18,579 nt of DNA from an uncultured Nitrosomonadales bacterium. Lineage in GTDB: Bacteria; Pseudomonadota; Gammaproteobacteria; Burkholderiales; Gallionellaceae. The position numbers and the translations under genes were made by a program. The stretch covers positions 1-18,579 of the forward strand of contig CAIZNF010000567.1 in NCBI GenBank assembly GCA_903934275.1, in the 5' to 3' direction. Of this stretch, positions 2,875 to 18,579 are shown piece after piece (positions within the stretch are counted from its first letter, which is position 1; every line of letters begins with the position of its first letter). Below the pieces are notes generated by a model that saw only the letters and a program-made list of their open reading frames with translations, was not told where the DNA came from and did not search any database.

Positions 2875-2925
2875 GTCGGGTTGCACCCGGCATTTTTGGA
2901 ATGCGGCGGGTAGAACCCGCCCTAC
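2871..2925 (+). repeat. 55-bp double-hairpin palindromic element, copy 2
   Basis: This is the second copy of the element at 2682-2736, offset exactly 189 bases, with the same outer inverted repeat and both inner hairpins. The central spacer reads GCATTTTTGGAATG instead of ATATTTTTGGGATG, so both hairpin stems are conserved while the linker varies. It ends 17 bases before the functional dnaQ start. Confidence 0.8.
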
Positions 2926-2942
2926 AAAAACAGGCAAGATTT

Positions 2943-3647
2943 ATGAGACGAATTGTAGTCGATACTGAAACCACCGGGCTTGACCCAAAACAGGGGCATC
3001 GTATCATCGAACTGGCGGCGATTGAACTGGACGGGCGCAAGTTGTCTTTGCGTCGTTTTCACCGTTATCTCAACCCTGAACGGGAGATCGAAGCAGGGGC
3101 GGTCGCGGTGCATGGATTGACCTACGAGCGTTTGCAAAATGAGGCAAAGTTTGCCGATGTCGCGGCCAGTTTTATGGAGTTCGTCGAAGGCGCGGAGCTT
3201 ATTATTCATAATGCTCCGTTCGACATGAGCTTTATCAATCACGAGATGGAATTGATCGGGTTGCCGCCATTGCAGAATAAAGTGATTGATACGTTGAAGG
3301 TCGCGCGCGAAATGCATCCGGGCAAGAAAAACAGCCTGAATGCGCTGTGTTCCCGCTATGAAATCGACAACTCGCATCGCAGCCTGCATGGTGCGTTGCT
3401 GGATACCGAGTTGCTAGCCGAAGTTTATTTCGCCATGACGCGAGGCCAAGAAAGCTTGCTTGGCGACGACCTCGCGCCCAAGGTACGCCAACCTGCGGTG
3501 TTGAGCGCAGATGCGTCGCGCCCCAAACTGCGCGTATTGCTGCCAAGCGCTGAAGAGCTGGCCGAGCACGCGCAACAATTGATAGATATCGACAAGGCCA
3601 GCAAGGGCGCGTGTTTGTGGAAAAAACTGGACAGTGTGGCTTTATAG
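2943..3647 (+). CDS. dnaQ: DNA polymerase III epsilon subunit (3'-5' proofreading exonuclease)
   Basis: Epsilon proofreads newly made DNA inside the Pol III core. I chose the ATG at 2943, giving 234 aa, because the family begins right before the ExoI motif (MRRIVVDTETTG); the in-frame ATG at 2901 would only translate the hairpin element. The DEDDh residues are all present: D7 and E9 (ExoI), D94 in HNAPFDMSF (ExoII), and H149 and D154 in HGALLDTELLAEVY (ExoIII). QESLL at 169-173 matches the internal beta-clamp-binding motif of epsilon. The C-terminal tail (about 185-234) is where this subunit binds the polymerase alpha PHP domain. The ribosome-binding site is weak (CAGGCAAG). Both its upstream region and its start are products of the tandem duplication. 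Confidence 0.96.
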   Translation: MRRIVVDTETTGLDPKQGHRIIELAAIELDGRKLSLRRFHRYLNPEREIEAGAVAVHGLTYERLQNEAKFADVAASFMEFVEGAELIIHNAPFDMSFINHEMELIGLPPLQNKVIDTLKVAREMHPGKKNSLNALCSRYEIDNSHRSLHGALLDTELLAEVYFAMTRGQESLLGDDLAPKVRQPAVLSADASRPKLRVLLPSAEELAEHAQQLIDIDKASKGACLWKKLDSVAL

Positions 3648-7261: not shown

Positions 7262-8674
7262 TTAGCCTTCTCTTCCGATTCCGTGATATTCAATGCCTTG
7301 TGCGGCAACGCTGGACGGCTCGAATAAATTTCTCCCATCAAAAATTATGGGCTGTTTCAAGCGTGCTTTGATGACGTTGAAGTCGGGGCTCTTGAAGGCT
7401 TTCCACTCGGTGACAATGACCAGCGCATCGGCTTCGTGCAGCGCATCCTGCGGGTTGTCGGTGTAGCCTAGGTCGGCGCGTGCGGCTCCCGCCTTTTGGT
7501 GGCTTTGCAGAGGATAGATATGCCGGGTTCCTTCCATTGCCGCCGGGTCATACGCGGTGACAGTCGCGCCTCGCGCCCATAACCCTTCCATCACCACGCG
7601 GCTGGTCGCCTCGCGCATGTCGTCGGTGCCCGGCTTGAAAGCCAGCCCCCATAGTGCGAAGTGCTTGCCCTTCAAGTTTTCGCCGAAGCGTTTGGTGATT
7701 TTTTGCAGCAGCACGGATTTTTGGGAGTCGTTGACTCGCTCTACAGCTTCCAGTACTTTCAGCGGCAGGCCATATTCCGCACCGGTGCGTTGCAGTGCGC
7801 GGATGTCCTTGGGGAAACACGAGCCGCCGTAGCCGCAGCCAGCATACAGAAAGTGGTAGCCGATGCGCTGGTCTGAGCCGATTCCTTTGCGCACATGTTC
7901 TATGTCCGCGCCGACCTTCTCGGCCAGGTTGGCCAGTTCGTTCATGAACGAGATGCGCGTGGCGAGCATCGCGTTGGCGGCATACTTGGTCAGTTCGGCG
8001 GAGCGGATGTCCATCACCATCAAGCGGTCATGGTTGCGCTGGAACGGTGCATACATCTCGCGCATGATTTTGATCGCATCTTCGTCCTCGGCACCGATGA
8101 CGATGCGGTCAGGGCGGTTGAAGTCGTCAATGGCTGCACCTTCCTTGAGGAATTCCGGGTTTGAGACTACGCTGAAATTTAATCCGCGCTCTCCCAAGCC
8201 CTCACCCCCAGCCCCTCTCCCGCCTACGGTAGAGGGGAGAGAGGTAATGCCACGCTTGTTCAATTCTTCCTGCACCGCCTGCTTAACCTTGTCGGCGGTG
8301 CCGACCGGCACGGTTGATTTATCGACGATCACCTTGTATTCGGCCATGGCGCGACCAATGGCGCGGGCGGCTGCGATGACATATTGCAGATCCGCCGAGC
8401 CATCCTCTCCGGAAGGTGTGCCCACTGCGATCATTTGCACGAGTCCGTGCGCCACGCTTTCATTGATGTCGGTGGTGAAGCGCAGGCGGCCTGCGGCGAC
8501 ATTGCTTTTGATGACGGATTCCAGGCCGGGCTCGTAGATCGGCACGCCGCCGTTGTTGAGGATGTCGATCTTGCGTGGATCGATATCCAGGCAGACGACA
8601 TCGTTGCCCAGTTCGGCGAGACATGCACCGGATACTAATCCGACATAGCCGGAACCGATTACTGTGATTTTCAT
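7262..8674 (-). CDS. ugd: UDP-glucose 6-dehydrogenase with an in-frame repeat insertion
   Basis: Ugd oxidises UDP-glucose to UDP-glucuronate with two NAD+, feeding capsule, exopolysaccharide or LPS sugar synthesis. The N-terminal Rossmann motif is [15 protein letters not shown] (7-21). The Cys nucleophile is C286 in [11 protein letters not shown], and the catalytic-domain motif [24 protein letters not shown] is at 171-194. The C-terminal UDP-binding block [16 protein letters not shown] is at 343-358. Length is 470 aa, against about 435-450 for the family. The excess sits at about residues 143-165 ([22 protein letters not shown]), exactly where a palindromic repeat lies in the DNA. The segment is in frame and replaces a short linker before the strand leading to SNPEF, so the enzyme may still work. 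An AAGG precedes the ATG by a few bases. The mRNA leader would contain another repeat hairpin (8696-8731). Confidence 0.94.
8185..8250. repeat. GC-rich palindromic repeat inserted in frame in ugd
   Basis: The plus strand reads CTCTCCCAAGCCCTCACC, then CCCAGCCCCTCTCCCGCC, then a TACGGT loop, then AGAGGGGAGAGAGG. The core stem is CCCCTCT (8212-8218) with AGAGGGG (8231-8237). The pattern of CCCTCACCC, CCAGCCC, CTCTCCC and a palindrome closing with GGGGAGAG is a recurrent dispersed-repeat type in many proteobacterial genomes. It encodes the Gly/Arg/Glu-rich segment of Ugd that homologues lack. Confidence 0.8.
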
Positions 8675-9277: not shown

Positions 9278-9940
9278 ATGAATAATAACAACCCGACCCA
9301 GAAGACATTTTGCACGACGAGAGAGACAGCAATAATTCTTGGCGTGTCATTGCGCACTGCGCAGCTTTGGACCGAAAGTGGCTTACTTGAGGCTTGGAAA
9401 ACCAAGGGTGGGCATCGGCGCATCGCGCGCAAATCAATTGAGCTGCTACTCGCCAATCCCACTGTGCGCGAATTACCTGCCGAATCAAACCTGACACGCC
9501 GAATCACTGACGCGGGCAACGAAACATCCGCGCCCGAAGCACTGAATATTCTGGTAGCCGAAGATGACCAGACTCTGTGCCTGCTTTATGAATACAAGCT
9601 TCGTGGTTGGCCGATGCAGCCCAACGTCTGTATCGTCAACGATGGATACGAGGCGCTCATCCGTATGGGCCATGTTAAACCGGACATCCTGATTGCAGAC
9701 TTGCAGATGCCGGGAATGGACGGATTCAAAATGCTCAACACTATCCGTAGTGTGCCCGAACTGTCAGGAATGAAAATTATCGTTGTGAGTGGCCTTGATC
9801 CGGAAGAAATAGCCAGTCGCGGCGGCGTTCCTGAAGACATACCTGTTCTATCCAAACCCATACCGTTCGACCAGTTGCAGGCAATTGCCGAAGTCGTGGC
9901 GGCCCAACGCCAGAATCTCAAAACAAAGGAGCCAACATGA
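9278..9940 (+). CDS. Response regulator with N-terminal HTH and C-terminal receiver
   Basis: This 220-aa protein begins with an excisionase/MerR-type winged helix-turn-helix (about 11-58). It shows TTRETAIILGVSLRTAQLW followed by the basic wing TKGGHRRIARKSI. A linker of about 30 residues leads to a CheY-like receiver (about 89-208). Acidic pocket E95/D96/D97, phosphoacceptor D141 (IADLQMPGMDG), S171 in the Thr/Ser switch position and K193 (LSKPIP) are all present. The order is reversed compared with usual response regulators, where the receiver comes first. It is probably the DNA-binding output of the locus; the targets are unknown and autoregulation is possible. No clear Shine-Dalgarno precedes ATG 9278. 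It overlaps the next gene by 4 bp (ATGA). Confidence 0.88.
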   Translation: MNNNNPTQKTFCTTRETAIILGVSLRTAQLWTESGLLEAWKTKGGHRRIARKSIELLLANPTVRELPAESNLTRRITDAGNETSAPEALNILVAEDDQTLCLLYEYKLRGWPMQPNVCIVNDGYEALIRMGHVKPDILIADLQMPGMDGFKMLNTIRSVPELSGMKIIVVSGLDPEEIASRGGVPEDIPVLSKPIPFDQLQAIAEVVAAQRQNLKTKEPT

Positions 9941-10302
9941 AAAAAATATTAATCGTTGATGATCATTCCGACATGCGTCGCTTGATTCGCATCACGTTGG
10001 GCAAGGCATTTGAAGTGATTGAAGCGGAAGATGGAGACAGTGGACTCGCAATCATCCGTCAGAGGAAACCTGATCTTGTCGTGCTGGATGTGATGATGCC
10101 CGGCGGGCTGAATGGACTGGAAGTGCTGGATGCCATCAAGAGCAACCCTGATCTCAAGCATATACACGTCATCATGGTCACGGCTCGCGGCCAGGTAGCA
10201 GACTATGAAGATGGAATGCTGCGCGGCGCGGATGCTTACTTTATCAAGCCTTTCAGCCCGCTGCAGGTCACTGCCTTAATCAATAAAATACTAACCCAGT
10301 GA
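9937..10302 (+). CDS. Stand-alone CheY-like receiver protein
   Basis: The 121-aa protein is a single receiver domain and nothing else. Acidic pocket D8/D9 (LIVDDH), phosphoacceptor D51 (VLDVMMPGG), T82 (MVTARG) and K104 (FIKPFSP) are intact, so it should be phosphorylatable. Single-domain receivers act as shuttles in phosphorelays or bind targets by protein contact. It overlaps the HTH-receiver gene by ATGA and has a strong AAAGGAG five bases before its start. The two are therefore translationally coupled, and the small receiver can also be made at its own rate. Confidence 0.93.
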   Translation: MKKILIVDDHSDMRRLIRITLGKAFEVIEAEDGDSGLAIIRQRKPDLVVLDVMMPGGLNGLEVLDAIKSNPDLKHIHVIMVTARGQVADYEDGMLRGADAYFIKPFSPLQVTALINKILTQ

Positions 10303-10309
10303 GAACACC

Positions 10310-10927
10310 ATGATCCATGAAACCGATGCACTTGATAAAACACTGCCGGCTGGCGGCCAATCATTTCGCCCGTCCAATAGTTTGTTTCTTGAAGGAATTC
10401 TTGGCGACAATGCTATTAATTTTACTATGCAGGCTCTCCGCTACGCCGAAGATCTGCAGAAAATGATCGAACGTTACGAAAATGTAAAAAATCACTATGA
10501 GGAGATGCTTGAATCATGCACTGTGCTCGCGGAAGGCTTGGATGAAATGAATGAACTGGTGCGCAGTTTGCGCGACATGTACATCATCACCGACATAGTG
10601 GGCACGATAATTGAGTTCAATCCGGCAAGCGAGGTGTTGATTCCCCCGCACCTGATGATGCACACCAAGCTGCAGGACTTGGTGCTGCCTTCGGACCGTG
10701 AAAAATTTATTGCGCTGCAATCGAAAGCCATTGAGAACAGCGTTTCACCGGTGCAGGCGAGTGAAATGAGCTTATACCGTAAAAACTGCGATGCACCACC
10801 GCTGTTTGTTTCGGCTCAGGTACTGGTGGTGCGCAAGGAAGGCAAGGTACGTTTCCTGAAATGGGTGATGCGCGACATAACTCCTCAGCGTGAAAATAAA
10901 ATTGAATGTTCCGTCACCCTGACTTAA
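10310..10927 (+). CDS. Coiled-coil/PAS sensory protein without an output domain
   Basis: This 205-aa protein has an N-terminal module (1-78) with the pattern DALDxTLPAGGQ, then RYAEDLQKMIER (44-55), a heptad-like helix and HYEEMLESC. It is followed by a PAS-like domain (about 85-192; IITDIVGTIIEFNPASEVL is the PAS core, and FLKWVMRDITPQRE the final strand and exit helix). There is no kinase, GGDEF or other output domain, so it may act by dimerising with PAS/coiled-coil partners. The same N-terminal module opens the diguanylate cyclase at 16022, so the two could hetero-associate or compete. It starts 7 bp after the receiver gene. An AAGGAG at its end serves the next reading frame. The function is not established. 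Confidence 0.8.
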   Translation: MIHETDALDKTLPAGGQSFRPSNSLFLEGILGDNAINFTMQALRYAEDLQKMIERYENVKNHYEEMLESCTVLAEGLDEMNELVRSLRDMYIITDIVGTIIEFNPASEVLIPPHLMMHTKLQDLVLPSDREKFIALQSKAIENSVSPVQASEMSLYRKNCDAPPLFVSAQVLVVRKEGKVRFLKWVMRDITPQRENKIECSVTLT

Positions 10928-10936
10928 GGAGTGCTC

Positions 10937-11074
10937 ATGAGTACAAACACGGCAAGAAATACAATCTTGAACCCAAATAGAATGCCAGCCAAAAAACCGT
11001 TCGCCCCGAGCATGTCGAAGGGTATCTTATGGTTAAGCAAGGTTGTCATGAACAATTTTTTAGCTCAGGCTTGA
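10937..11074 (+). CDS. Possible 45-aa peptide, or truncated gene start
   Basis: An ATG at 10937 follows TAAGGAG with a five-base gap, the best ribosome-binding site near here. It opens a 45-codon frame (MSTNTARNTILNPNRMP to FLAQA) ending at TGA 11072-11074. Codons 20-29 are encoded by a palindromic repeat (10997-11022), so the reading frame may be the leftover 5' end of a gene disrupted by it. It overlaps the start of the PhnD-like gene in another frame and may couple its translation. I recognise no family. Confidence 0.3.
   Translation: MSTNTARNTILNPNRMPAKKPFAPSMSKGILWLSKVVMNNFLAQA
10997..11022. repeat. Short palindromic repeat near the PhnD-like gene start
   Basis: CCGTTCGCCCCGAGC followed by ATGTCGAAGGG has near-palindromic ends (CCGTTCG against CGAAGGG, 6 of 7) around a GAGC core. 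It matches from memory the GTTCGCCCTGAGC..GTCGAAGGG type of repeat scattered in many proteobacterial genomes. It supplies the GAAGGG that precedes ATG 11029. Confidence 0.55.
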
Positions 11075-11967
11075 TCTTGTCTAATGAGTTATTCGGGTTG
11101 AAGCAACTTGCGCACAGCGTCCGGCGCGCAAATCTACGGGCAAGCCGCCTCCTGTTTTTGCTGCTGGCCTGCATGATAGGAGTCACGTTTCAGGCGCGGG
11201 CGGAAGAGCCTTCGCTGACAATCGGCATTGTGCCGCAACAATCGGCCAGCCGGTTGGCCGAGGAATGGGGGCCGCTGCTGGCCGAAATCACGCGGCGCTC
11301 CGGTGTTCAGCTGGTCTTGCGCACGGCTCCCAGCATTCCTGTTTTCGAACAGCGCCTGGCCAAGGGCGAATTCGATCTGGCCTACATGAACCCCTATCAT
11401 TATGTCGTCTTCCACAAAGCGGCCGATTATCTCGCCTTTGCCAAGGAGCAGGATCGCAGGATCAAAGGCATTCTGGTCGTGAAAAAAGATAGCCACTACC
11501 AGAAACCGGCAGACCTGGCAGGAAAGACCGTGGTATTCCCGGCTCCCGCAGCATTCGCCGCCAGCATCCTGCCACAGGCCGAGTTTGGCCGTTTGAACAT
11601 CCCCATCAACACCAAATTCGTTACCTCCCACGACTCCGTGTATCGGGCGGTATCCTCGGGTCTGCAAGAGGCGGGCGGGGGGATCCAGCGCACCCTTGAG
11701 GCGGCACCGGCAGAGATCCGCGATTCCCTGCGGATACTTTCTGAAACACCCGCCTACACCCCGCATGCGTTCGCCGCACATCCGCGCGTGCCGCACGAGA
11801 CACTGGCAAAGGTGATGGCTGCCATGCAATCGCTCAATGGTGACGATGCTGGACGACTCCTGCTTGCGCCACTGGCCTTCAAAGGTATCACTGCGGCACA
11901 GGACAAGGAATGGAACGACATCCGCGCCCTGGATATTAACCTCCTGGAACGTTACAGCCGCCAGTAA
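11029..11967 (+). CDS. PhnD-like periplasmic substrate-binding protein
   Basis: This protein belongs to the PhnD/SsuA/transferrin-type solute-binding fold. LTIGIVPQQSASRLAEEWGPLLAEI (63-87) is the typical opening of phosphate/phosphonate-binding homologues, and FDLAYMNPYHYVVFHK (115-130) is the ligand-site loop. DLAGKTVVFPAPAAFAASILP (162-182) and the HDSVYRAV helix (201-208) follow. A signal peptide is clear (basic RRANLRASR, hydrophobic LLFLLLACMIGVTF, ARA cleavage near residue 58). Counted from ATG 11029 its n-region is unusually long, so TTG 11098 (giving about 289 aa) is a plausible real start. No ABC permease or ATPase genes are adjacent; a membrane kinase follows after 7 bp. It is therefore more likely a periplasmic ligand sensor for that kinase than a transporter part. 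The ligand is unknown; an oxyanion is a guess from the family. Confidence 0.87.
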   Translation: MVKQGCHEQFFSSGLILSNELFGLKQLAHSVRRANLRASRLLFLLLACMIGVTFQARAEEPSLTIGIVPQQSASRLAEEWGPLLAEITRRSGVQLVLRTAPSIPVFEQRLAKGEFDLAYMNPYHYVVFHKAADYLAFAKEQDRRIKGILVVKKDSHYQKPADLAGKTVVFPAPAAFAASILPQAEFGRLNIPINTKFVTSHDSVYRAVSSGLQEAGGGIQRTLEAAPAEIRDSLRILSETPAYTPHAFAAHPRVPHETLAKVMAAMQSLNGDDAGRLLLAPLAFKGITAAQDKEWNDIRALDINLLERYSRQ

Positions 11968-11974
11968 CCAATCC

Positions 11975-13834
11975 ATGCGCTTTCGCACAAAAACCATTCT
12001 GGGTATTGCCGTGATCGAAATCACGTTGCTGGCCATTCTGGTCGGCAGCACCCTGTCGATTCTGCGAAAGTCCAACGAGGCCGAACTGATACGCAGGGTG
12101 CAACTGGCCGGCCAGTTGCTTGCCGTCGCCGCCAAGGATGCCGTGATCTCGCAGGACCTGGCCACACTGGACAGTCTCGTTGACGAGGCCATGATTTCCG
12201 ATCAGATCAACTTTGTGCGTATCCTTGACGCAAGAGGTGCCGTGCTGACTGAGCGGGGAGCTGCACCGCTACTCGCGCGGCCTTTTCACCAGGAAGCCAC
12301 CATCGTTCAAGTGCTCGACAACATCTTTGATTGGTCATCACCTGTCGTGGCGGGCAACATTCGTTATGGCGAAGTGCAGCTCGGGGTATCCACCCACCCC
12401 CTGGCCGATTTAATGGCCTCCACCCAAAGATGGGCAGCGGGTATTGCCGGCATAGAAATGCTCCTCGTCGCCATGTTTTCCTGGTTGCTCGGGAGCTATC
12501 TGGTGCGCCAGATGAGGGCGTTGCGCGAAGCCAGCTATACCTTTGCCGGAGGTGCCTTTGATCATCGTGTACCGGTGAAAGGCAACGATGAACTGGCACA
12601 AGTGGCGGTTGCCTTTAATCTCATGGCGCAGCAACTGGGTACCAGAGAAAATTTACTTCACGAAGAGAGCATCAAATACTACGAAGCACAGAAGGAAGCA
12701 GAATTTGCAAAGTTTCAGGCAGAAGACCGCACCGAGCAGCTGAATGCAATTTTCGAACTGAGCCCCGATGGCTTCGTAACCTTCGATGCAGCAGGCCGTG
12801 TCAAGTACATGAACCCGGCCTTCACGCGCATTTCCGGCCTGCCGACAGCCGAGATCATAGGTCTGGATGAAGCCGATTTTTCCGCGCGTCTTGCGCGTGA
12901 ATGCATTGGGACGGCACGCTTCCAAGGCATTGCAGCATTGCGTGAGATAAAAAAACTGGGCGCAGGCGAATCAAGCTATCACCCCCAGCAGATTGAATTG
13001 ACAGGTGTCGGCAATTGCGTACTCGAAGTCGTTTTGCGCGAATCTCAAGCGAGCACCGTCTCGCAAATTCTCTACTTCCGCGACATCACCCATGAAACCG
13101 AAATAGATCGCATGAAGAGCGAATTTCTCGCCACCGCCGCGCACGAACTGCGCACCCCGATGTCAAGCATCTACGGGTTTGCCGAACTTCTTGTGGAGCG
13201 GGAATTCAGCGCAGCCGAACAGCGCGAGTATCTCGGCATCATCTTCAGGCAATCCCAGTTGATGGCCAACATTATCAACGAACTGCTCGACCTCGCCCGC
13301 ATCGAGGCACGCCGCGGCCAAGACTTCGTCATCACCCGCATTGATCCCCGCATCCTGATGCAGGAGATCGTGACCGGCTTCAAGACATCGGAGGGGCGGT
13401 TGCCACCCGAATTGCAAGCTGGCGAGATTCCGCTCCAGGTAGATGCCGACCGCTCGAAGCTGATCCAGGCAATCACCAACGTACTCTCCAACGCCTATAA
13501 ATACTCCCCCGGTGGCGGTGCGGTGGCCGTCGAATTCATCGCACCGACCATCGAAGCGCAATCGCTGTCAAACGAGCGGACCTCGCGGGTCGGCATCCGC
13601 ATCACCGATCAGGGCATTGGCATGACGCCGGAACAACTGGCCTGCGTCTGCGAACGTTTTTACCGCGCCGATGCCTCCGGCAAGATTCCCGGCACCGGTC
13701 TGGGCATGAGCATCGTCAAAGAGATCGTCGAATTGCACGGCGGCGAATTGAATATCACCAGCACGATTGGCGCCGGCACGACCGTCACAATCTGGCTGCC
13801 CGGCAGCACACAACCACCGGCTGAACCAACATGA
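11975..13834 (+). CDS. Membrane sensor histidine kinase (HAMP-PAS-HisKA-HATPase)
   Basis: I start at ATG 11975, 7 bp after the PhnD-like stop, because it opens directly into the first membrane helix (residues 7-29); 619 aa. A periplasmic sensor segment (about 30-150) is followed by a second helix (153-177), HAMP (about 178-228), a coiled coil, PAS (about 253-373), and HisKA with H390 in FLATAAHELRTPM. The HATPase follows: N-box with N506 (NVLSNAYKYS), G1 DQGIGM 545-550, F-box ERFYRAD 560-566, G2 GTGLGM 573-578. It should autophosphorylate and pass phosphate to the unlinked receivers of the locus, as it has none of its own. The periplasmic part probably reads the PhnD-like protein; that is inferred from gene order. 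Its last 753 bp are almost the same as in the next kinase. Confidence 0.93.
   Translation: MRFRTKTILGIAVIEITLLAILVGSTLSILRKSNEAELIRRVQLAGQLLAVAAKDAVISQDLATLDSLVDEAMISDQINFVRILDARGAVLTERGAAPLLARPFHQEATIVQVLDNIFDWSSPVVAGNIRYGEVQLGVSTHPLADLMASTQRWAAGIAGIEMLLVAMFSWLLGSYLVRQMRALREASYTFAGGAFDHRVPVKGNDELAQVAVAFNLMAQQLGTRENLLHEESIKYYEAQKEAEFAKFQAEDRTEQLNAIFELSPDGFVTFDAAGRVKYMNPAFTRISGLPTAEIIGLDEADFSARLARECIGTARFQGIAALREIKKLGAGESSYHPQQIELTGVGNCVLEVVLRESQASTVSQILYFRDITHETEIDRMKSEFLATAAHELRTPMSSIYGFAELLVEREFSAAEQREYLGIIFRQSQLMANIINELLDLARIEARRGQDFVITRIDPRILMQEIVTGFKTSEGRLPPELQAGEIPLQVDADRSKLIQAITNVLSNAYKYSPGGGAVAVEFIAPTIEAQSLSNERTSRVGIRITDQGIGMTPEQLACVCERFYRADASGKIPGTGLGMSIVKEIVELHGGELNITSTIGAGTTVTIWLPGSTQPPAEPT
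13082..13834 (+). repeat. Duplicated kinase module, copy 1 (pairs with 15273-16025)
   Basis: The segment from GACATCACCCATGAAACC to the stop codon recurs at a constant offset of 2191 bases over 753 bp without indels. It covers the HisKA and HATPase domains. The first roughly 80 bases are essentially identical, and so are long stretches of the ATPase part. Most differences lie between the two domains. Confidence 0.93.
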
Positions 13835-13847
13835 TCGGAAAAATATT

Positions 13848-16025
13848 ATGCTGACAATCTTTCTGAGCAGGAAAACATTGCTCGCCTGGCTGATTCTCTG
13901 CATAGGGCTATTGGCTACCGTTTTCGCCAGCCTTCATGTCAAGCATGGCATCGAACAGGAAGTGGTGAAACAGTTTGCCTTCACCTGCGATCAAATCACC
14001 CTGAAAATCCAGGAACGGCTTCAAGCCTATGCGTTGATTCTTCGCGGCGGCAGCGGTCTTTTCGGCGCGTCAACCTCTGTAGAGCGCGATGAATGGCGTG
14101 CCTACGTTGAGGCACTGCAAGCAGAGAAGAGCATTCGTGGCGTGCAAGGAGTAGGATTTGCACAAGTCATTCCGGCCGATCAACTTGCCAGCCACATCGC
14201 CGCTATTCGCCGCGAAGGCTTCCCCGACTACACCGTGCGCCCGCCCGGCGAACGCGCCCTCTACACCTCGATCATCTTTCTGGAACCTTTTCGCGATCGC
14301 AACCTGCGCGCCTTCGGCTTCGACATGTTCTCCGAACCGGTCAGGCGCAACGCCATGGAACAGGCGCGCGACACGGGTGAAGCGGCACTGTCCGGCAAGG
14401 TCGAACTGGTGCAGGAGACTGCCTCCCAGGTTCAGGCGGGGACGCTGATGTATGTCCCCATCTATCGCAATGGCGCTGTGGTGGACACGGTAGAGCGGCG
14501 CCGGGCGGCGCTGGTCGGTTGGGCCTACAGCCCCTACCGCATGAATGATCTCATGGAGGGCATTATTCTCGACTGGGATAGCCTCAACGGAAAAACCGTT
14601 GACCTGCACATCCATGATGGCTCCAAGGCAACGCCCGCCAACTTGTTGTTCGATAGCAAGCCTGACACCCCCTTTGATTTGTCCTCGCTGTTTAACCAGT
14701 CACGGATGATCAACTTCAACGGACGTCCGTGGCTGCTGGCCTTCAATCAGCACGTAACAGCATCCGGCATCAGCTACATGCCTGCATGGCTTAGTCTGAT
14801 TGGCGGCTTCGCGCTCAGCGGCATGTTGTTCTGGTTAATGCTCTCGGTGATCAACACGCGAATCAACGCCAAGCGCATTGCCGATGAGCTGACAGGAGAG
14901 CTCACAACCAGTGAGAAGATGCTACGCAAAACCAGCAATCGTCTGAAACAAGCCACGCTCGCAGGCGGAGTGGGTATCTGGGACTTTGACGTTGCCAGAA
15001 ATATCCTGTCGTGGGATGACCAGATGTATGTACTTTATGGGCTCACGCGGACTCAGTTCGGCGGCGTATATGAGGCATGGAAGTCGGCTGTCTCCCCGGA
15101 AGATGCAACGAGAATCGAGTTGGAAATGCAGCGGGCGCTGCGCGGTGAAAAGGAATTTGACACTGAATTCAGTGTGGTCTGGCCGAACGGAGCGATCCAC
15201 AACATCCGCGCCATTGGCAGTGTGGAGCGTGATGATTGCGGCCAGCCGGTGCACATGATAGGCACCAACTGGGACATCACCCATGAAACCGAAATAGATC
15301 GCATGAAGAGCGAATTTCTCGCCACCGCCGCGCACGAACTGCGCACCCCGATGGCAAGCATCTTCGGCTTTACCGAACTTCTTCTGGAGCGGAAATTCAG
15401 CGCAGCCGAGCAGCGCGAGTTTCTCGGCACCATCTACAGACAATCAAAATTGATGTCCAAGATCACCAACGAACTGCTCGACCTCGCCCGCATCGAGGCA
15501 CGACGCGGCAAAGACTTCATCATCACCGGCATTGATCTGCGCATCCTGTTGCAGGAGATTGTAACCAGCTTCAAGGTACCGGAGGGGCGGTTGCCACCCG
15601 AATCGCAAGCTGGCGAAATTCCGCTTCAGGTGGATGCCGACCGTTCAAAGCTGATCCAGGCAATCACCAACGTACTCTCGAACGCCTATAAATACTCCCC
15701 CGGCGGCGGTGCTGTGACCATCGAATTCATAGTACCGGCCATCGAAGCGCAGTCGCTGCCAAACGAGCGGGCCTCGCGGGTCGGCATCCGCATCACCGAC
15801 CAGGGTATCGGCATGACGCCGGAGCAGCTGGCCCGCGTCTGCGAACGCTTTTACCGCGCCGATGCCTCCGGCAAGATTCCCGGCACCGGCCTGGGCATGA
15901 GCATCGTCAAAGAGATCGTCGAATTGCATGGTGGAGAGTTGAATATCACCAGCACTCTCGGCACCGGCACGACCGTCACAATCTGGCTGCCCGGCAGCGC
16001 ACAATTACAGGCTGAACCGACATGA
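13848..16025 (+). CDS. CHASE-domain sensor histidine kinase (CHASE-PAS-HisKA-HATPase)
   Basis: The first in-frame ATG after the previous stop is 13848, giving 725 aa with a membrane helix at 8-29. A CHASE sensor domain spans about 60-240. Its recognisable signature runs from ILRGGSGLFGAS through GVGFAQVIP to YTSIIFLEPFRDRNLRAFGFDM and RRNAMEQARDTGEAALSGKV. CHASE domains bind small ligands outside the membrane. A second helix lies at 313-335. A PAS_3-type domain (about 370-478) has WDFDVARNILSWDDQMY. H496 (FLATAAHELRTPM) is the phospho-site; N612, DQGIGM 651-656 and GTGLGM 679-684 form the ATP site. No receiver is attached. It ends in a 4-bp ATGA overlap with the cyclase gene. The start has only a weak ribosome-binding site (CGGAAAAA). 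Confidence 0.93.
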   Translation: MLTIFLSRKTLLAWLILCIGLLATVFASLHVKHGIEQEVVKQFAFTCDQITLKIQERLQAYALILRGGSGLFGASTSVERDEWRAYVEALQAEKSIRGVQGVGFAQVIPADQLASHIAAIRREGFPDYTVRPPGERALYTSIIFLEPFRDRNLRAFGFDMFSEPVRRNAMEQARDTGEAALSGKVELVQETASQVQAGTLMYVPIYRNGAVVDTVERRRAALVGWAYSPYRMNDLMEGIILDWDSLNGKTVDLHIHDGSKATPANLLFDSKPDTPFDLSSLFNQSRMINFNGRPWLLAFNQHVTASGISYMPAWLSLIGGFALSGMLFWLMLSVINTRINAKRIADELTGELTTSEKMLRKTSNRLKQATLAGGVGIWDFDVARNILSWDDQMYVLYGLTRTQFGGVYEAWKSAVSPEDATRIELEMQRALRGEKEFDTEFSVVWPNGAIHNIRAIGSVERDDCGQPVHMIGTNWDITHETEIDRMKSEFLATAAHELRTPMASIFGFTELLLERKFSAAEQREFLGTIYRQSKLMSKITNELLDLARIEARRGKDFIITGIDLRILLQEIVTSFKVPEGRLPPESQAGEIPLQVDADRSKLIQAITNVLSNAYKYSPGGGAVTIEFIVPAIEAQSLPNERASRVGIRITDQGIGMTPEQLARVCERFYRADASGKIPGTGLGMSIVKEIVELHGGELNITSTLGTGTTVTIWLPGSAQLQAEPT
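14961..15277 (+). repeat. Duplicated PAS module, copy 1 (pairs with 16274-16590)
   Basis: The DNA for the PAS domain of the CHASE kinase recurs in the diguanylate cyclase gene at a constant offset of 1313 bases over about 310 bp without indels. Conservation stops abruptly at TGGGAC (GTNWDIT against GTNWDFT), where the kinase goes on to HisKA and the cyclase to GGDEF. Confidence 0.9.
15273..16025 (+). repeat. Duplicated kinase module, copy 2 (pairs with 13082-13834)
   Basis: This is the second copy of the HisKA-HATPase block. The repeat begins within a few bases of where the PAS-module repeat ends, so module borders coincide with domain borders. Both copies end with GGCTGAACC-ACATGATC, meaning the 4-base stop/start overlap is part of the duplicated unit. 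Confidence 0.93.
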
Positions 16026-17182
16026 TCCCTGCTGCCGATGCACTTGATACAACGTTACCGGCTGGCGGGCAAACGTTGCGTCTGCCCGGCGGCGACCACA
16101 CCAGCGCGCTCCATGATCAGCTCTACCGCTACGCCGAGGATTTGCAGAAGTTGATCGAACGCAACGTCGAGTTGCAAACTCACTACGAAGAAATGATTAG
16201 GTCATGCAAGATACTTATTGAAGGCCTGGAGAAATCGGAGGATAAAAATGATCTGGTGACTCTGGCTACGCGCGTGGGCGGGGTGGGAATATGGGACTTT
16301 GACGTTGTCCGGAACACGATGTTGTGGGATGACCAGATGTTTGTACTTTATGGGCTCACGCAAAATCAGTTCGGCGGTGTCTACGAGTCATGGAAGTCGG
16401 CAGTCTCCCCGGAGGACGCACCGAGAATCGATGCGGAAATGCAGAGGGCGCTGCGCGGCGAAAAAGAATTCGACACTGAATTTCGCATTGTCTGGCCGAA
16501 CGGGACTATCCGCAACATCCGCGCCATCGGCAGCGTAGCGCGTGATACTTCCGGTCAGCCCGTACACATGACAGGCACCAACTGGGACTTCACCGAACGC
16601 AAGCAGATGGAAGACCGGATAAGTCAGCTTGCGTTCTACGATGCGCTCACCAATTTACCGAACCGTCGTTTGCTCAATGACCGCCTGGCCCAGTCCATTG
16701 TCGCCAGCAATCGCAGCGGTTGCTATAGCGCGCTGATGTTCCTTGATCTGGACAACTTCAAGCCCCTCAATGATACACATGGGCATGTGGTGGGCGACTT
16801 GTTGCTGATGGAAGTGGCCAGCCGGCTGAAAGGTTCTGTGCGTGAGAAGGATACTGTGGCGCGCTTTGGCGGTGACGAGTTTGTGGTGATGCTGGGCGAT
16901 TTGGATAAGGATAAAAACGCATCGATTTCCCATGCCGAGTTTGTTGCAGAAAAAATACGCGCTGCCGTGTCTGAACCCTATCGGTTGACCATCTGTCACG
17001 ATGATCAAACTGAGACCACTGTTGAACACCGCTGCACTGTGAGTATCGGTGTAGTCGTGTTCATCGGCCACAATGGCAACCAGGAAGACTTCCTCAAGTG
17101 GGCCGACCATGCCATGTACCAAGCCAAAAAGGCGGGGCGCAACTCGATTCGGTTTCATGATGCAGATGGGATGACATCATGA
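16022..17182 (+). CDS. Diguanylate cyclase (coiled coil-PAS-GGDEF)
   Basis: The protein makes cyclic di-GMP from two GTP. It is 386 aa and soluble. The N-terminal module (1-72; DALDTTLPAGGQ, RYAEDLQKLIER, HYEEMIRSC) matches the PAS protein at 10310. PAS spans about 80-192 (VGIWDFDVVRNTMLWDDQMF) and GGDEF about 200-378. The active-site motif GGDEF is intact at 283-287. DNFKPLNDTHGHVVGD (244-259) carries the metal and guanine contacts. The inhibitory I-site RxxD is present at 274-277 (REKD), exactly five residues before GGDEF, so product inhibition is expected. No EAL or HD-GYP domain is attached and no phosphodiesterase gene is in view. It is coupled to the CHASE kinase by ATGA and to the receiver-Hpt gene by another ATGA. 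Confidence 0.95.
   Translation: MIPAADALDTTLPAGGQTLRLPGGDHTSALHDQLYRYAEDLQKLIERNVELQTHYEEMIRSCKILIEGLEKSEDKNDLVTLATRVGGVGIWDFDVVRNTMLWDDQMFVLYGLTQNQFGGVYESWKSAVSPEDAPRIDAEMQRALRGEKEFDTEFRIVWPNGTIRNIRAIGSVARDTSGQPVHMTGTNWDFTERKQMEDRISQLAFYDALTNLPNRRLLNDRLAQSIVASNRSGCYSALMFLDLDNFKPLNDTHGHVVGDLLLMEVASRLKGSVREKDTVARFGGDEFVVMLGDLDKDKNASISHAEFVAEKIRAAVSEPYRLTICHDDQTETTVEHRCTVSIGVVVFIGHNGNQEDFLKWADHAMYQAKKAGRNSIRFHDADGMTS
16274..16590 (+). repeat. Duplicated PAS module, copy 2 (pairs with 14961-15277)
   Basis: This copy lies in the cyclase gene, ungapped against the kinase copy. Shared blocks include FGGVYE-WKSAVSPEDA, MQRALRGEKEFDTEF, VWPNG and NIRAIGSV, so ligand or redox sensing may be common to both proteins. 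Confidence 0.9.
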
Positions 17183-18432
17183 AAATTGCCGGGTTGCTTC
17201 AGCGTGTTAAATCCTCCTATGCCGGTGCGCGCATCTTGTTGGTCGAAGACGACGAGATCAACCAGCAAGTGGCACTGGAACTGTTGCGTCAGGCGCATTT
17301 CAATGTCGATCTTGCCGAGAATGGCCGCATTGCGCTCACCCGGCTTCAGGCTCAGAACTACGACCTGGTATTGATGGATGTGCAGATGCCGGTGATGGAT
17401 GGTATCGCCGCCACCGTTGAATTACGCGGCCACCCTCGCTACGCCAAACTGCCGATTGTGGCAATGGCCGGCAACGTGTTGGCGGCAGATCAGAAGCGCT
17501 GCCTTGATGCCGGCATGAACGATTTTATTGCCAAGCCTGTCGAGCCGGAGCAGCTCTGGCAGGTTTTGCTCAAATGGATTCCCGTGCGCCACGCACCAAC
17601 CCCGTTAGCGACCATCAGCCCGAATGACACACCGTCAAATGCCACCTTCAATCTCAATATTCATGGGATAGACCCGATAACGGCACTACGGCGTATGCTG
17701 GGCAATACCGAACTTTATACCTCCACCCTGCGCAAGTTCTGCGAATTTCAGGAAAATATGCCAGTTGCAACCCGTGTGGCGCTTGACGCTGACGACTGGA
17801 TCACAGCACAACGACGCGCCCACACTTTGAAAGGTGTGGCTGGCAGCATCGGTGCCAACAGACTGGCGGCGGATGCCGCATTGCTGGAGCAAGCCCTGGC
17901 AGAGCATTGGTCTCGGGGCGAGGCTGACAAGCTCATCGACACACTCGAAGTGCAACTGCTGGAAATGATCGCCACCGTACGTCTCGGTCTGCCGCCCGCT
18001 GGCAGCGTAGTGGTAACCGATCGGGCTGGCAGTGCGGAGGCAATGGCGGCGTTCGAAGCACTGCTGGCCGATAGTGACCCCGAAGCGGTGGCATGGCTGG
18101 ATCGCAATACCAGTGTAATGAGCGTCCTTCTGTCAGCGTCGCACCTGGCGAAAATCCAGGCGGCGGTAAACACCTGCGATTTCGACGATGCCTTGCATCT
18201 GCTGCGAAAAGCCCACCTTACGGAGCAGGAATTTACTAAAGAACCACTTGTAAATTTATACCTGTCAAACCAAAAACAACCCACCCCCACCCTAACCCTC
18301 CCCCTGAAGGGGAGGGAACATGGCTCCTCCCCATTCAAGGGGGAGGTTGGGAGGGGGATGGGGGGAAATGCTGGAGACATGATTAAGGGTATTTTTAGAA
18401 TTTCTGTCTCCCTTACCAAAGGAAACTCTTGA
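17179..18432 (+). CDS. Receiver-Hpt phosphotransfer protein
   Basis: This 417-aa protein has a receiver (about 17-132) with acidic pocket E23/D24/D25, phosphoacceptor D67 (VLMDVQMPVMDG) and K119 (FIAKPVEP). The usual Thr/Ser switch position (normally AMTAN) is alanine here (AMAGN, A97). An Hpt domain (about 160-270) follows with phospho-histidine H215 in RRAHTLKGVAGSIGANRLA. A C-terminal alpha-helical region (about 285-350, MAAFEALLADSDPEAVAWLD and DFDDALHLLRKA) resembles the extra helical part found after Hpt in some hybrid kinases. It can connect the kinases to the other receivers in a His-Asp-His-Asp chain. Residues from about 366 on are encoded by a palindromic repeat and the sequence after it, so the natural end was probably near LSNQK. 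It overlaps the cyclase gene by ATGA and the next gene by one base (TGATG). Confidence 0.92.
   Translation: MKIAGLLQRVKSSYAGARILLVEDDEINQQVALELLRQAHFNVDLAENGRIALTRLQAQNYDLVLMDVQMPVMDGIAATVELRGHPRYAKLPIVAMAGNVLAADQKRCLDAGMNDFIAKPVEPEQLWQVLLKWIPVRHAPTPLATISPNDTPSNATFNLNIHGIDPITALRRMLGNTELYTSTLRKFCEFQENMPVATRVALDADDWITAQRRAHTLKGVAGSIGANRLAADAALLEQALAEHWSRGEADKLIDTLEVQLLEMIATVRLGLPPAGSVVVTDRAGSAEAMAAFEALLADSDPEAVAWLDRNTSVMSVLLSASHLAKIQAAVNTCDFDDALHLLRKAHLTEQEFTKEPLVNLYLSNQKQPTPTLTLPLKGREHGSSPFKGEVGRGMGGNAGDMIKGIFRISVSLTKGNS
18281..18365. repeat. Double GC-rich palindromic repeat at the 3' end of the receiver-Hpt gene
   Basis: Two hairpins lie in series: CCCTCCCC-CTGAA-GGGGAGGG (18296-18316) and CCTCCCC with GGGGAGG (18326-18346). 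They are flanked by CCACCCCCACCCTAACC on the left and a matching GGTTGGGAGGGGGATGGGG on the right. It is of the same general type as the ugd repeat but a longer, two-stem form. It encodes PTPTLTLPLKGREHGSSPFK and onward in frame. Confidence 0.85.
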
Positions 18433-18579
18433 TGACACATACAAATAGCAACACTGTTTTGTTAATCGATGACAGCCCGGAGATCATCAGCCTCATCAAC
18501 GGATTACTCAAGCCGAGCTACCTCATCAAGGCCGCCAATGGTGGCGAGAAAGGGTTGCATCTGGCGGAGCAGGAGCCCA
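18432..18579 (+). CDS. Response regulator receiver domain protein (partial, runs off the right edge)
   Basis: ATG 18432 overlaps the preceding TGA by one base and has AAAGGA eight bases upstream. The 49 visible codons read MTHTNSNTVLLIDDSPEIIS to HLAEQEP: beta-1 with the acidic pair D13/D14, then alpha-1, beta-2 (YLIKAANGGEKGL) and alpha-2 of a CheY-like receiver. The phospho-Asp and any output domain lie beyond the window. It is probably the next member of the same operon. Confidence 0.85.
   Translation, partial: MTHTNSNTVLLIDDSPEIISLINGLLKPSYLIKAANGGEKGLHLAEQEP

What the first reader, a model, noticed from the sequence alone, without database searches (positions are those of the whole stretch)
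9278..18579. Compact nine-gene multi-input phosphorelay and c-di-GMP locus
Seen: nine co-directional signalling genes with short gaps or 1-4 bp overlaps at most junctions. They encode two membrane kinases without receivers, four receiver proteins (one with HTH, one with Hpt, one alone, one partial), a PAS-only protein, a GGDEF cyclase and a PhnD-like periplasmic binder. Known: such parts form His-Asp-His-Asp relays. Inferred: the PhnD-like protein and the CHASE domain supply two external inputs, converging on one Hpt and splitting into a transcriptional (HTH-receiver) and a c-di-GMP output. I do not recognise this combination as a described system.
Basis: partly seen in the sequence, partly recalled or inferred. 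Interest (0 to 1): 0.75.

Follow-up and report, generated by a model that had tools for sequence, protein, structure and literature searches.

The report
Modular multi-sensor phosphorelay and c-di-GMP operon
A bacterium related to iron oxidisers carries one operon that couples exchangeable outside sensors to a shared set of phosphate-relay proteins which probably control genes and the messenger c-di-GMP; versions of it recur in related bacteria.

Summary
Eight complete genes and one cut by the contig end run in one direction with gaps of -4, 7, 101, 7, 13, -4, -4 and -1 bp: HTH-REC, REC, PAS, PhnD-like binder, HAMP-PAS kinase, CHASE-PAS kinase, PAS-GGDEF, REC-Hpt, cut REC. The cut gene is very likely the start of a REC-HD-GYP c-di-GMP phosphodiesterase: two relatives carry the intact gene right after their Hpt gene. 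Similar, modular operons recur, chiefly in Betaproteobacteria; HTH-REC is usually first. The binding-protein slot holds PhnD, LivJ-type or family-3 proteins in different members, while HTH-REC, a single REC and one kinase-core type recur. The PhnD-like protein looks like a kinase partner, not a transporter part, and lacks arsenite-pocket residues of AioX. The two kinases carry nearly identical cores (88% protein, 91% DNA) behind unrelated sensors, as if homogenised to share targets. No phosphotransfer was tested. The parts are known kinds; the combination is a new variant of branched systems such as Roc. Ligand and target genes are unknown.

The parts
9278..9940 (+). g1: response regulator with N-terminal HTH_17/MerR-like DNA-binding domain and C-terminal receiver
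   Evidence: Pfam; 1256 relatives at E<=1e-20; 17 of 150 family genomes
9937..10302 (+). g2: single-domain receiver, 67-77% identical to the receiver gene near HTH-REC in five relatives
10310..10927 (+). g3: coiled N-terminus plus PAS; matches the front half of the diguanylate cyclases that follow HTH-REC in relatives; no GGDEF
   Evidence: 40-42% over 203 aa to the cyclases of L051, L053, L054 and 45% to the L052 gene in that place, which had no GGDEF label
11029..11967 (+). g4: PhnD-like periplasmic binding protein, likely ligand receptor for g5
   Evidence: Pfam; 72-78% identical to PhnD beside a kinase in five relatives, 57-59% in two more; no ABC gene among the nine
11975..13834 (+). g5: histidine kinase with two predicted membrane helices around a periplasmic sCache/PAS-like domain, HAMP, PAS, HisKA, HATPase
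13082..13834 (+). kinase core block of g5, 90.8% identical in DNA to the g6 block
13848..16025 (+). g6: histidine kinase with CHASE, PAS_3, HisKA, HATPase
   Evidence: Pfam
14952..15281 (+). PAS block of g6 shared with g7 (83% DNA identity over 330 bp)
15273..16025 (+). kinase core block of g6 shared with g5 (90.8% over 753 bp)
16022..17182 (+). g7: coiled N-terminus, PAS_3, GGDEF diguanylate cyclase with RxxD site, no receiver
   Evidence: 78% identical to the L214 gene in the same place
17179..18432 (+). g8: REC-Hpt; matches the tail of hybrid HK-REC-REC-Hpt kinases of relatives; the last ~65 aa are absent from the L214 gene and include a dispersed repeat
18432..18579 (+). g9: first 49 codons of a probable REC-HD-GYP phosphodiesterase, cut by the contig end

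Best explanation
This is one member of a modular, mainly betaproteobacterial family of operons that feed several outside signals into a shared phosphorelay with a transcriptional and a c-di-GMP output. The PhnD-like g4 binds an unknown small ligand and, by opening or closing, acts on the periplasmic PAS-like domain of kinase g5. CHASE kinase g6 reads a second ligand. Because g5 and g6 carry nearly the same HisKA-HATPase core, both phosphorylate the same receivers: the single receiver g2, the HTH-REC g1 (transcription) and/or the receiver of g8. The Hpt of g8 passes phosphate on, most likely to the REC-HD-GYP g9, which degrades c-di-GMP. The cyclase g7 has no receiver and is set by its PAS and coiled region, perhaps through pairing with g3, which has a like coil but no cyclase domain. 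Shown: gene order, domains, recurrence, the kinase neighbours of this PhnD subfamily, core sharing. Inferred: each ligand, contact and phosphotransfer step.
For: Recurrence: 80 HTH-REC loci from public genomes. In 77 with a placed anchor, the part of the same-strand run downstream of HTH-REC holds a kinase in 43, a single REC in 37, GGDEF in 20, Hpt in 11, PhnD in 7, HD-GYP in 7, none of the scored kinds in 26. A same-genus genome (L140) has HTH-REC, REC, cyclase, PhnD, kinase, kinase, hybrid kinase with Hpt and REC-HD-GYP in a row. Profile: kinase core at E<=1e-45 in 13 of 150 family genomes, 12 of which have HTH-REC (17 of 150), Fisher p 4.5e-13, not corrected for kinship; 20 of 27 such cores lie within about 13 kb of an HTH-REC on the same contig (my count). 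The next-best kinase in the own genome is 36% identical. Kinase partner: 9 of 10 genes with the g5 sensor N-terminus sit next to PhnD. Of 5 sister PhnD places (48-52% identity) looked at, 4 are followed directly by a kinase, while 3 of 3 transporter-type PhnDs looked at are followed by a gene that I read as an ABC ATPase. Fold: the g5 sensor model (pLDDT 83) matches WalK and a LapD-type periplasmic output domain. REC-HD-GYP in the same place. Swapped binding proteins.
Against: 26 of 77 HTH-REC genes have none of the scored partners downstream in the run, and 5 of 17 family genomes with HTH-REC lack the kinase core. In the nearest relative, G019, the HTH-REC and the operon tail are on separate contigs and the HTH-REC is followed by opposite-strand genes. 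One g5-type kinase (L139) has no PhnD beside it, and one sister PhnD (G013) is followed by a PAS protein with no kinase domain seen before the fetched stretch ends. The REC-Hpt belongs in relatives to hybrids whose own kinase core (MSHEIRTPMN type) is about 29-34% identical to g5, so g5/g6 may not phosphorylate it. There are no expression, binding or phosphotransfer data. Domain calls outside the Pfam runs used home-made profiles and motifs.
Confidence: 0.6

Rival explanations
1. Several separate two-component systems merely sit side by side: PhnD-g5 with g2, CHASE-g6 with g1, and the REC-Hpt/HD-GYP as a leftover of a lost hybrid kinase fed from elsewhere. No real convergence.
For: The REC-Hpt is part of a full hybrid kinase in L140; modules come and go between loci; g3 has no GGDEF, which suggests decay.
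Against: g5 and g6 share an 88% identical core, and grouping the g5 core with other PhnD-partner cores is rejected (AU p 9.8e-5 and 9.4e-6), so the two should share targets; overlapping genes; co-occurrence.
Confidence: 0.28
2. The PhnD-like protein is an ordinary phosphonate/phosphite transporter subunit and the signalling genes around it are unrelated.
For: Pfam Phosphonate-bd match; the best solved relatives are PtxB and a phosphonate binder.
Against: No ABC gene among the nine; kinase neighbours in 4 of 5 sister places, ABC-type neighbours for 3 of 3 transporter-type PhnDs looked at; scores under the NCBIfam transporter cut-offs (72 vs 112, 70 vs 261); the S-T-S stretch of PtxB reads A-F-A.
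Confidence: 0.06
3. The near-identical kinase cores are an assembly artefact of a metagenome bin rather than real homogenisation.
For: G000 is a 722-contig genome with 5.7% contamination.
Against: The blocks differ at about 9% of bases, too many for a collapsed repeat; L214, from another genome, carries a core 81-83% identical to both next to the same downstream genes.
Confidence: 0.05

Closest known systems
Roc system of Pseudomonas aeruginosa (RocS1/S2/S4, RocA1-3, RocR, HptA; PMC12051241, passages seen)
   Same: Several kinases with different sensors and like cores act on shared receivers; a separate Hpt can serve; outputs are transcription factors plus a receiver-linked c-di-GMP phosphodiesterase; solute-binding-type sensing.
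   Different: Roc kinases are hybrid or unorthodox and RocS1 and RocS4 carry fused SBP_bac_3 domains; regulators have GerE, the phosphodiesterase is EAL; genes are in several loci. Here the sensors are a free PhnD-like protein and CHASE, the two kinases have no REC, the HTH is N-terminal, the phosphodiesterase is HD-GYP, and a cyclase is in the operon.
AioX / ArxX / ArrX arsenic sensing (PMC5908839, passages seen)
   Same: A PhnD-fold periplasmic protein that signals to a histidine kinase.
   Different: g4 has N, A, A where AioX has Cys106, Ser161, Ser163 (numbering offset of 21 worked out by me); the regulator here is HTH-REC.
RpfC/RpfG (recalled)
   Same: Hpt-bearing relay and REC-HD-GYP phosphodiesterase.
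   Different: RpfC is one hybrid kinase with a DSF synthase gene nearby (recalled); the nine genes here hold no such enzyme by Pfam.
LuxP and TorT signalling (named in PMC5908839; kinases recalled)
   Same: A free periplasmic binding protein signals through a kinase.
   Different: Binding proteins stated there to be structurally and phylogenetically distinct from AioX; c-di-GMP enzymes in those operons are not known to me.

Membership tests
AioX-type arsenic three-component system | PhnD-fold binder encoded next to a sensor kinase | tested here: met
AioX-type arsenic three-component system | Arsenite-binding Cys106 and pocket Ser161/Ser163 (residues from PMC5908839) | tested here: not met
   Aligned letters in g4 are N, A, A; the pocket His192 is kept
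AioX-type arsenic three-component system | Arsenic oxidase/reductase genes beside it | not tested
   None of the nine genes by Pfam; ORFs upstream of 9278 and the rest of the genome were not searched for them
ABC phosphonate/phosphite transporter binding protein | ABC ATPase and permease genes in the operon | tested here: not met
   none among the nine genes; the operon is cut on the right
ABC phosphonate/phosphite transporter binding protein | Curated family score over cut-off | tested here: not met
   TIGR01098 72.0 vs 112.05; TIGR03431 70.2 vs 261.1; the general Pfam family cut-off is passed
Roc-type branched system | Two or more kinases with alike cores and different sensors | tested here: met
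   g5/g6 core 88% identical, CHASE vs PhnD-partner sensor
Roc-type branched system | Kinases carry REC or REC and Hpt; regulators carry GerE; phosphodiesterase is EAL | tested here: not met
Roc-type branched system | Shared phosphotransfer to several regulators | not testable with these tools
   needs biochemistry
His-Asp-His-Asp phosphorelay | HisKA, REC, Hpt and output REC with intact acceptor residues in one locus | tested here: met
   motifs; the g8 switch residue is Ala; transfer itself untested
c-di-GMP metabolising locus | Cyclase with intact GGDEF motif and a phosphodiesterase domain | tested here: inconclusive
   GGDEF and RxxD present in g7; the HD-GYP part lies beyond the contig end and is inferred from L214 and L140

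The most novel reading that the evidence does not exclude
A sensor-swappable signalling chassis: a fixed set of HTH-REC, single REC and one histidine-kinase core type accepts interchangeable binding-protein/kinase cassettes (PhnD, LivJ-type, family-3, CHASE, dCache), and kinases with unrelated sensors can keep their cores alike by local copying so that all inputs stay wired to one set of receivers that drive transcription and c-di-GMP.
Probability: 0.4. Interest if true: 0.68.

Novelty: new variant of a known kind. Interest (0 to 1): 0.5.

Why it matters
Two-component signalling is usually described as one kinase for one regulator (recalled). An operon family whose front ends are exchanged while cores and receivers recur offers natural replicates for asking how bacteria add inputs without losing wiring. 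It would also give a c-di-GMP system fed by free binding proteins: a 2022 review states that, of the periplasmic-binding-protein clan, only SBP_bac_3 (in RmcA) had been studied in c-di-GMP networks (PMC8846402, passage seen). The PhnD subfamily here is a candidate for finding a new ligand.

Tried and rejected
Transporter reading of the PhnD gene: judged unlikely on neighbours, family scores and pocket letters. Arsenite sensing: judged unlikely because Cys106 is absent. Upstream UDP-glucose-dehydrogenase-like gene (7262-8674, minus strand; name recalled from the sequence) as regulated target: not supported; of the window genes upstream of 9300 only the one at 2901-3647 had a match (in L087) among the ORFs picked from the relatives' loci. 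Other contigs of the own genome as continuation of g9: the DNA search gave 13 other places, all matching parts of the query up to position 127, i.e. the g8 tail, none the end of the contig. Promoter/terminator scan: 11 promoter-like against 6.9 expected and 6 terminator-like against 10.6 in shuffles, so no evidence for or against one transcript. A Poisson value used an expectation set by hand and is not used. A paper on a novel two-component system (PMC12826045, passages seen) concerns a REC-RsbW regulator and is not this. Homogenisation is not general: of the 12 loci with within-locus core pairs listed, the pair lies together in the tree in L073 (100/90) and L121 (86/91, two of its three kinases); the window pair groups with L214 at 100/99 with the order inside unresolved; the other 9 do not, though in the smaller tree the L139 pair joins weakly (91/26). 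The AU groups were named after I had seen the first tree. Rows dropped: L105, L109 and L117 had no placed anchor; in L052 and some others a small antisense ORF breaks the run, so the L052 PhnD counted as outside. The PhnD genes of the own genome other than g4 show further arrangements: a tandem pair behind GGDEF (L023/L024), a PhnD-PAS-PAS fusion (L025) and one place (L026) where my profile found no PhnD.
Full report
What is there. The window is a complete 18,579-base contig of a 3.33 Mb, 722-contig genome, 93.9% complete and 5.7% contaminated. A genome placed in the same genus, G086, is a single contig of 3,162,471 bases; the protein set lists a contig of exactly that length for a protein named from Gallionella capsiferriformans (P0098), so I take G086 to be that species. 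From 9278 to the contig end there are nine genes on the plus strand with junctions of -4, 7, 101, 7, 13, -4, -4 and -1 bp. The active-site motifs searched for are present, except that the switch residue of the g8 receiver is Ala.

The cut gene. The last 49 codons begin a receiver. The best match among the picked ORFs is the start of a 379-aa protein in L140 (71% over 42 aa), which Pfam reads as Response_reg plus HD_5. In L214, a contig of another genome of the same family, the order kinase, PAS-GGDEF (78% identical to g7), REC-Hpt (73% to g8), REC-HD-GYP (70% over 43 aa to g9), REC is kept. So the operon very likely continues with a c-di-GMP phosphodiesterase and another receiver. In L140 the genes after that are a receiver, a HisKA-like protein with Glu in place of the phospho-accepting His, a 108-aa protein without a Pfam match and an HDOD protein.

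A recurring family. Most record titles that name a group name Betaproteobacteria or a genus of them; several say only proteobacterium or bacterium, and one says Gammaproteobacteria. In 77 with a placed anchor, the part of the same-strand run (gaps under 350 bp) downstream of HTH-REC held a kinase in 43, a single receiver in 37, GGDEF in 20, the coiled N-terminus shared by g3 and g7 in 17, Hpt in 11, PhnD in 7, HD-GYP in 7, EAL in 6, CHASE in 2, and none of these in 26. The labels come from profiles built here and from motifs, which miss some genes (the L140 HD-GYP was missed at first), and many contigs are cut. HTH-REC is usually first but not always (L078, L127, L147). HTH-REC at E<=1e-20 is in 17 of 150 family genomes and 15 of 369 class genomes, own included, and 1256 such proteins were found in the large protein set.

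Linkage. The g5 core at E<=1e-45 is in 13 of 150 family genomes, and 12 of these also carry the HTH-REC; G036 does not. Five genomes have HTH-REC without the core. Fisher p is 4.5e-13, which does not correct for shared ancestry. Comparing the places, 20 of 27 cores lie within about 13 kb of an HTH-REC on the same contig; 7 do not (my count). In the own genome the best other kinase is 36% identical. Of 19 family PhnD places at E<=1e-45, the 7 at 57% identity or more are all on HTH-REC contigs, six within 5 kb and one at 10 kb; none of the 12 at 52% or less is within 20 kb of an HTH-REC hit.

PhnD with a kinase. The g5 sensor N-terminus (54-71% identity to the window) was found in 10 genes including the window. 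Nine are next to PhnD; the exception is L139. PhnD is 72-78% identical in five relatives and 57-59% in two more. Five sister PhnD places at 48-52% were looked at: four are followed directly by kinase genes (L190, L200, L201/L230, L202/L228), the fifth (L229, G013) by a PAS protein cut by the end of the fetched stretch, with a GGDEF gene before it. Three transporter-type PhnDs (L184, L186, L189) are followed by genes that I read as ABC ATPases. g4 scores below the NCBIfam transporter cut-offs. Against AioX it has N, A, A in place of Cys106, Ser161 and Ser163 (roles from PMC5908839; I matched the numbering by hand). An AlphaFold2 model of the g5 sensor (pLDDT 83, pTM 0.62) matches the WalK-YycH model (E 6.9e-7, TM 0.63 on the query) and a LapD-type periplasmic output domain (E 1.1e-6, TM 0.41). 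Both work with protein partners (recalled).

Swapped sensors. PhnD is found in L051-L055, L059, L061 and L063, 8 of 80 loci, mostly just after the cyclase. In the like place L056, L057, L084 and L104 carry Peripla_BP_6 proteins (51-59% alike) and L091 an SBP_bac_3 protein. A kinase follows directly in L057, L084 and L091, after an HDOD gene in L056; L104 is cut after a PAS stretch. L121, L125 and L127 have Peripla_BP_6 hits in other places. L119 has a dCache kinase instead.

Mosaic kinases. g5 and g6 share 753 bp at 90.8% with a sharp left edge near 13082; g6 and g7 share 330 bp at 83%, ending where the first block begins. Core identity is 88%, against 59-61% for the kinase pairs of L055, L059, L139 and L140. 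In the tree the g5 and g6 cores and the L214 core form one group (100/99), order inside unresolved. Holding g5 with other PhnD-partner cores is rejected (p 9.8e-5 for four rows, 9.4e-6 for seven), with the caution that I had seen a tree first. Since the g5 sensor half is clearly like theirs, the simplest reading is copying of one core over the other. Of 12 loci with pairs compared, L073 and L121 also have sister cores behind different front halves; 9 do not.

Reduction. g8 matches residues 1069-1397 of the 1407-aa hybrid kinase of L140 at 53%; the kinase half is missing in the window and in L214. g3 matches the front half of the cyclases of L051, L053 and L054 at 40-42% and has no GGDEF. So the window's version has lost, or never had, two catalytic parts seen in relatives and may rely more on g5 and g6.

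Mechanism. I favour PhnD/g5 and CHASE/g6 as two inputs to common receivers, with HTH-REC as transcriptional output and REC-Hpt to REC-HD-GYP as c-di-GMP output; the cyclase is not phospho-controlled. Only the anatomy and comparisons are shown. The main weakness is whether the AAHELRTPM-type cores phosphorylate a REC-Hpt that in relatives belongs to a different kinase type.

Literature. Nine keyword searches gave no title or abstract in the listings that describes this set; the search for PhnD, GGDEF, CHASE and histidine kinase together gave 0 papers. Only open-licence papers are held. Passages were seen in four papers: PMC5908839, PMC12826045, PMC8846402 and PMC12051241. The nearest described system in design is Roc.

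Noticed in passing
window 18300-18426: A dispersed repeat (13 other places in the own genome, 69-93% identity) lies in the C-terminal tail of g8; the L214 orthologue ends about 65 residues earlier.
   Followed up: partly
L061:13941-14468, L069:19388-19885, L139:2655, L140:2310-2801, L143:1099, L216:1815-2309: Short (157-175 aa) HisKA-like proteins next to a single receiver near the operon end; in the five aligned the phospho-accepting His reads Glu (L216 not aligned). Possible decoys or regulators of the kinases.
   Followed up: no
L051:6920-7747, L053:10657-11793, L069:10615-11811, L091:1471-2409: Kinase-like proteins of 275-398 aa right after HTH-REC that gave no BLAST match to the g5 core and end in a cysteine-containing stretch (ends only seen); possible pseudokinases.
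   Followed up: no
L023/L024 (G000:C442): Two PhnD-like genes in tandem behind a GGDEF gene in the own genome; another possible sensor set.
   Followed up: no
L097, L110: Record titles name Bordetella parapertussis for bins that encode this kind of locus; I suspect the names are wrong.
   Followed up: no
window 10928-11028: 101-bp gap between g3 and g4, the only sizeable gap among the nine genes; several relatives carry a full cyclase where g3 stands.
   Followed up: partly
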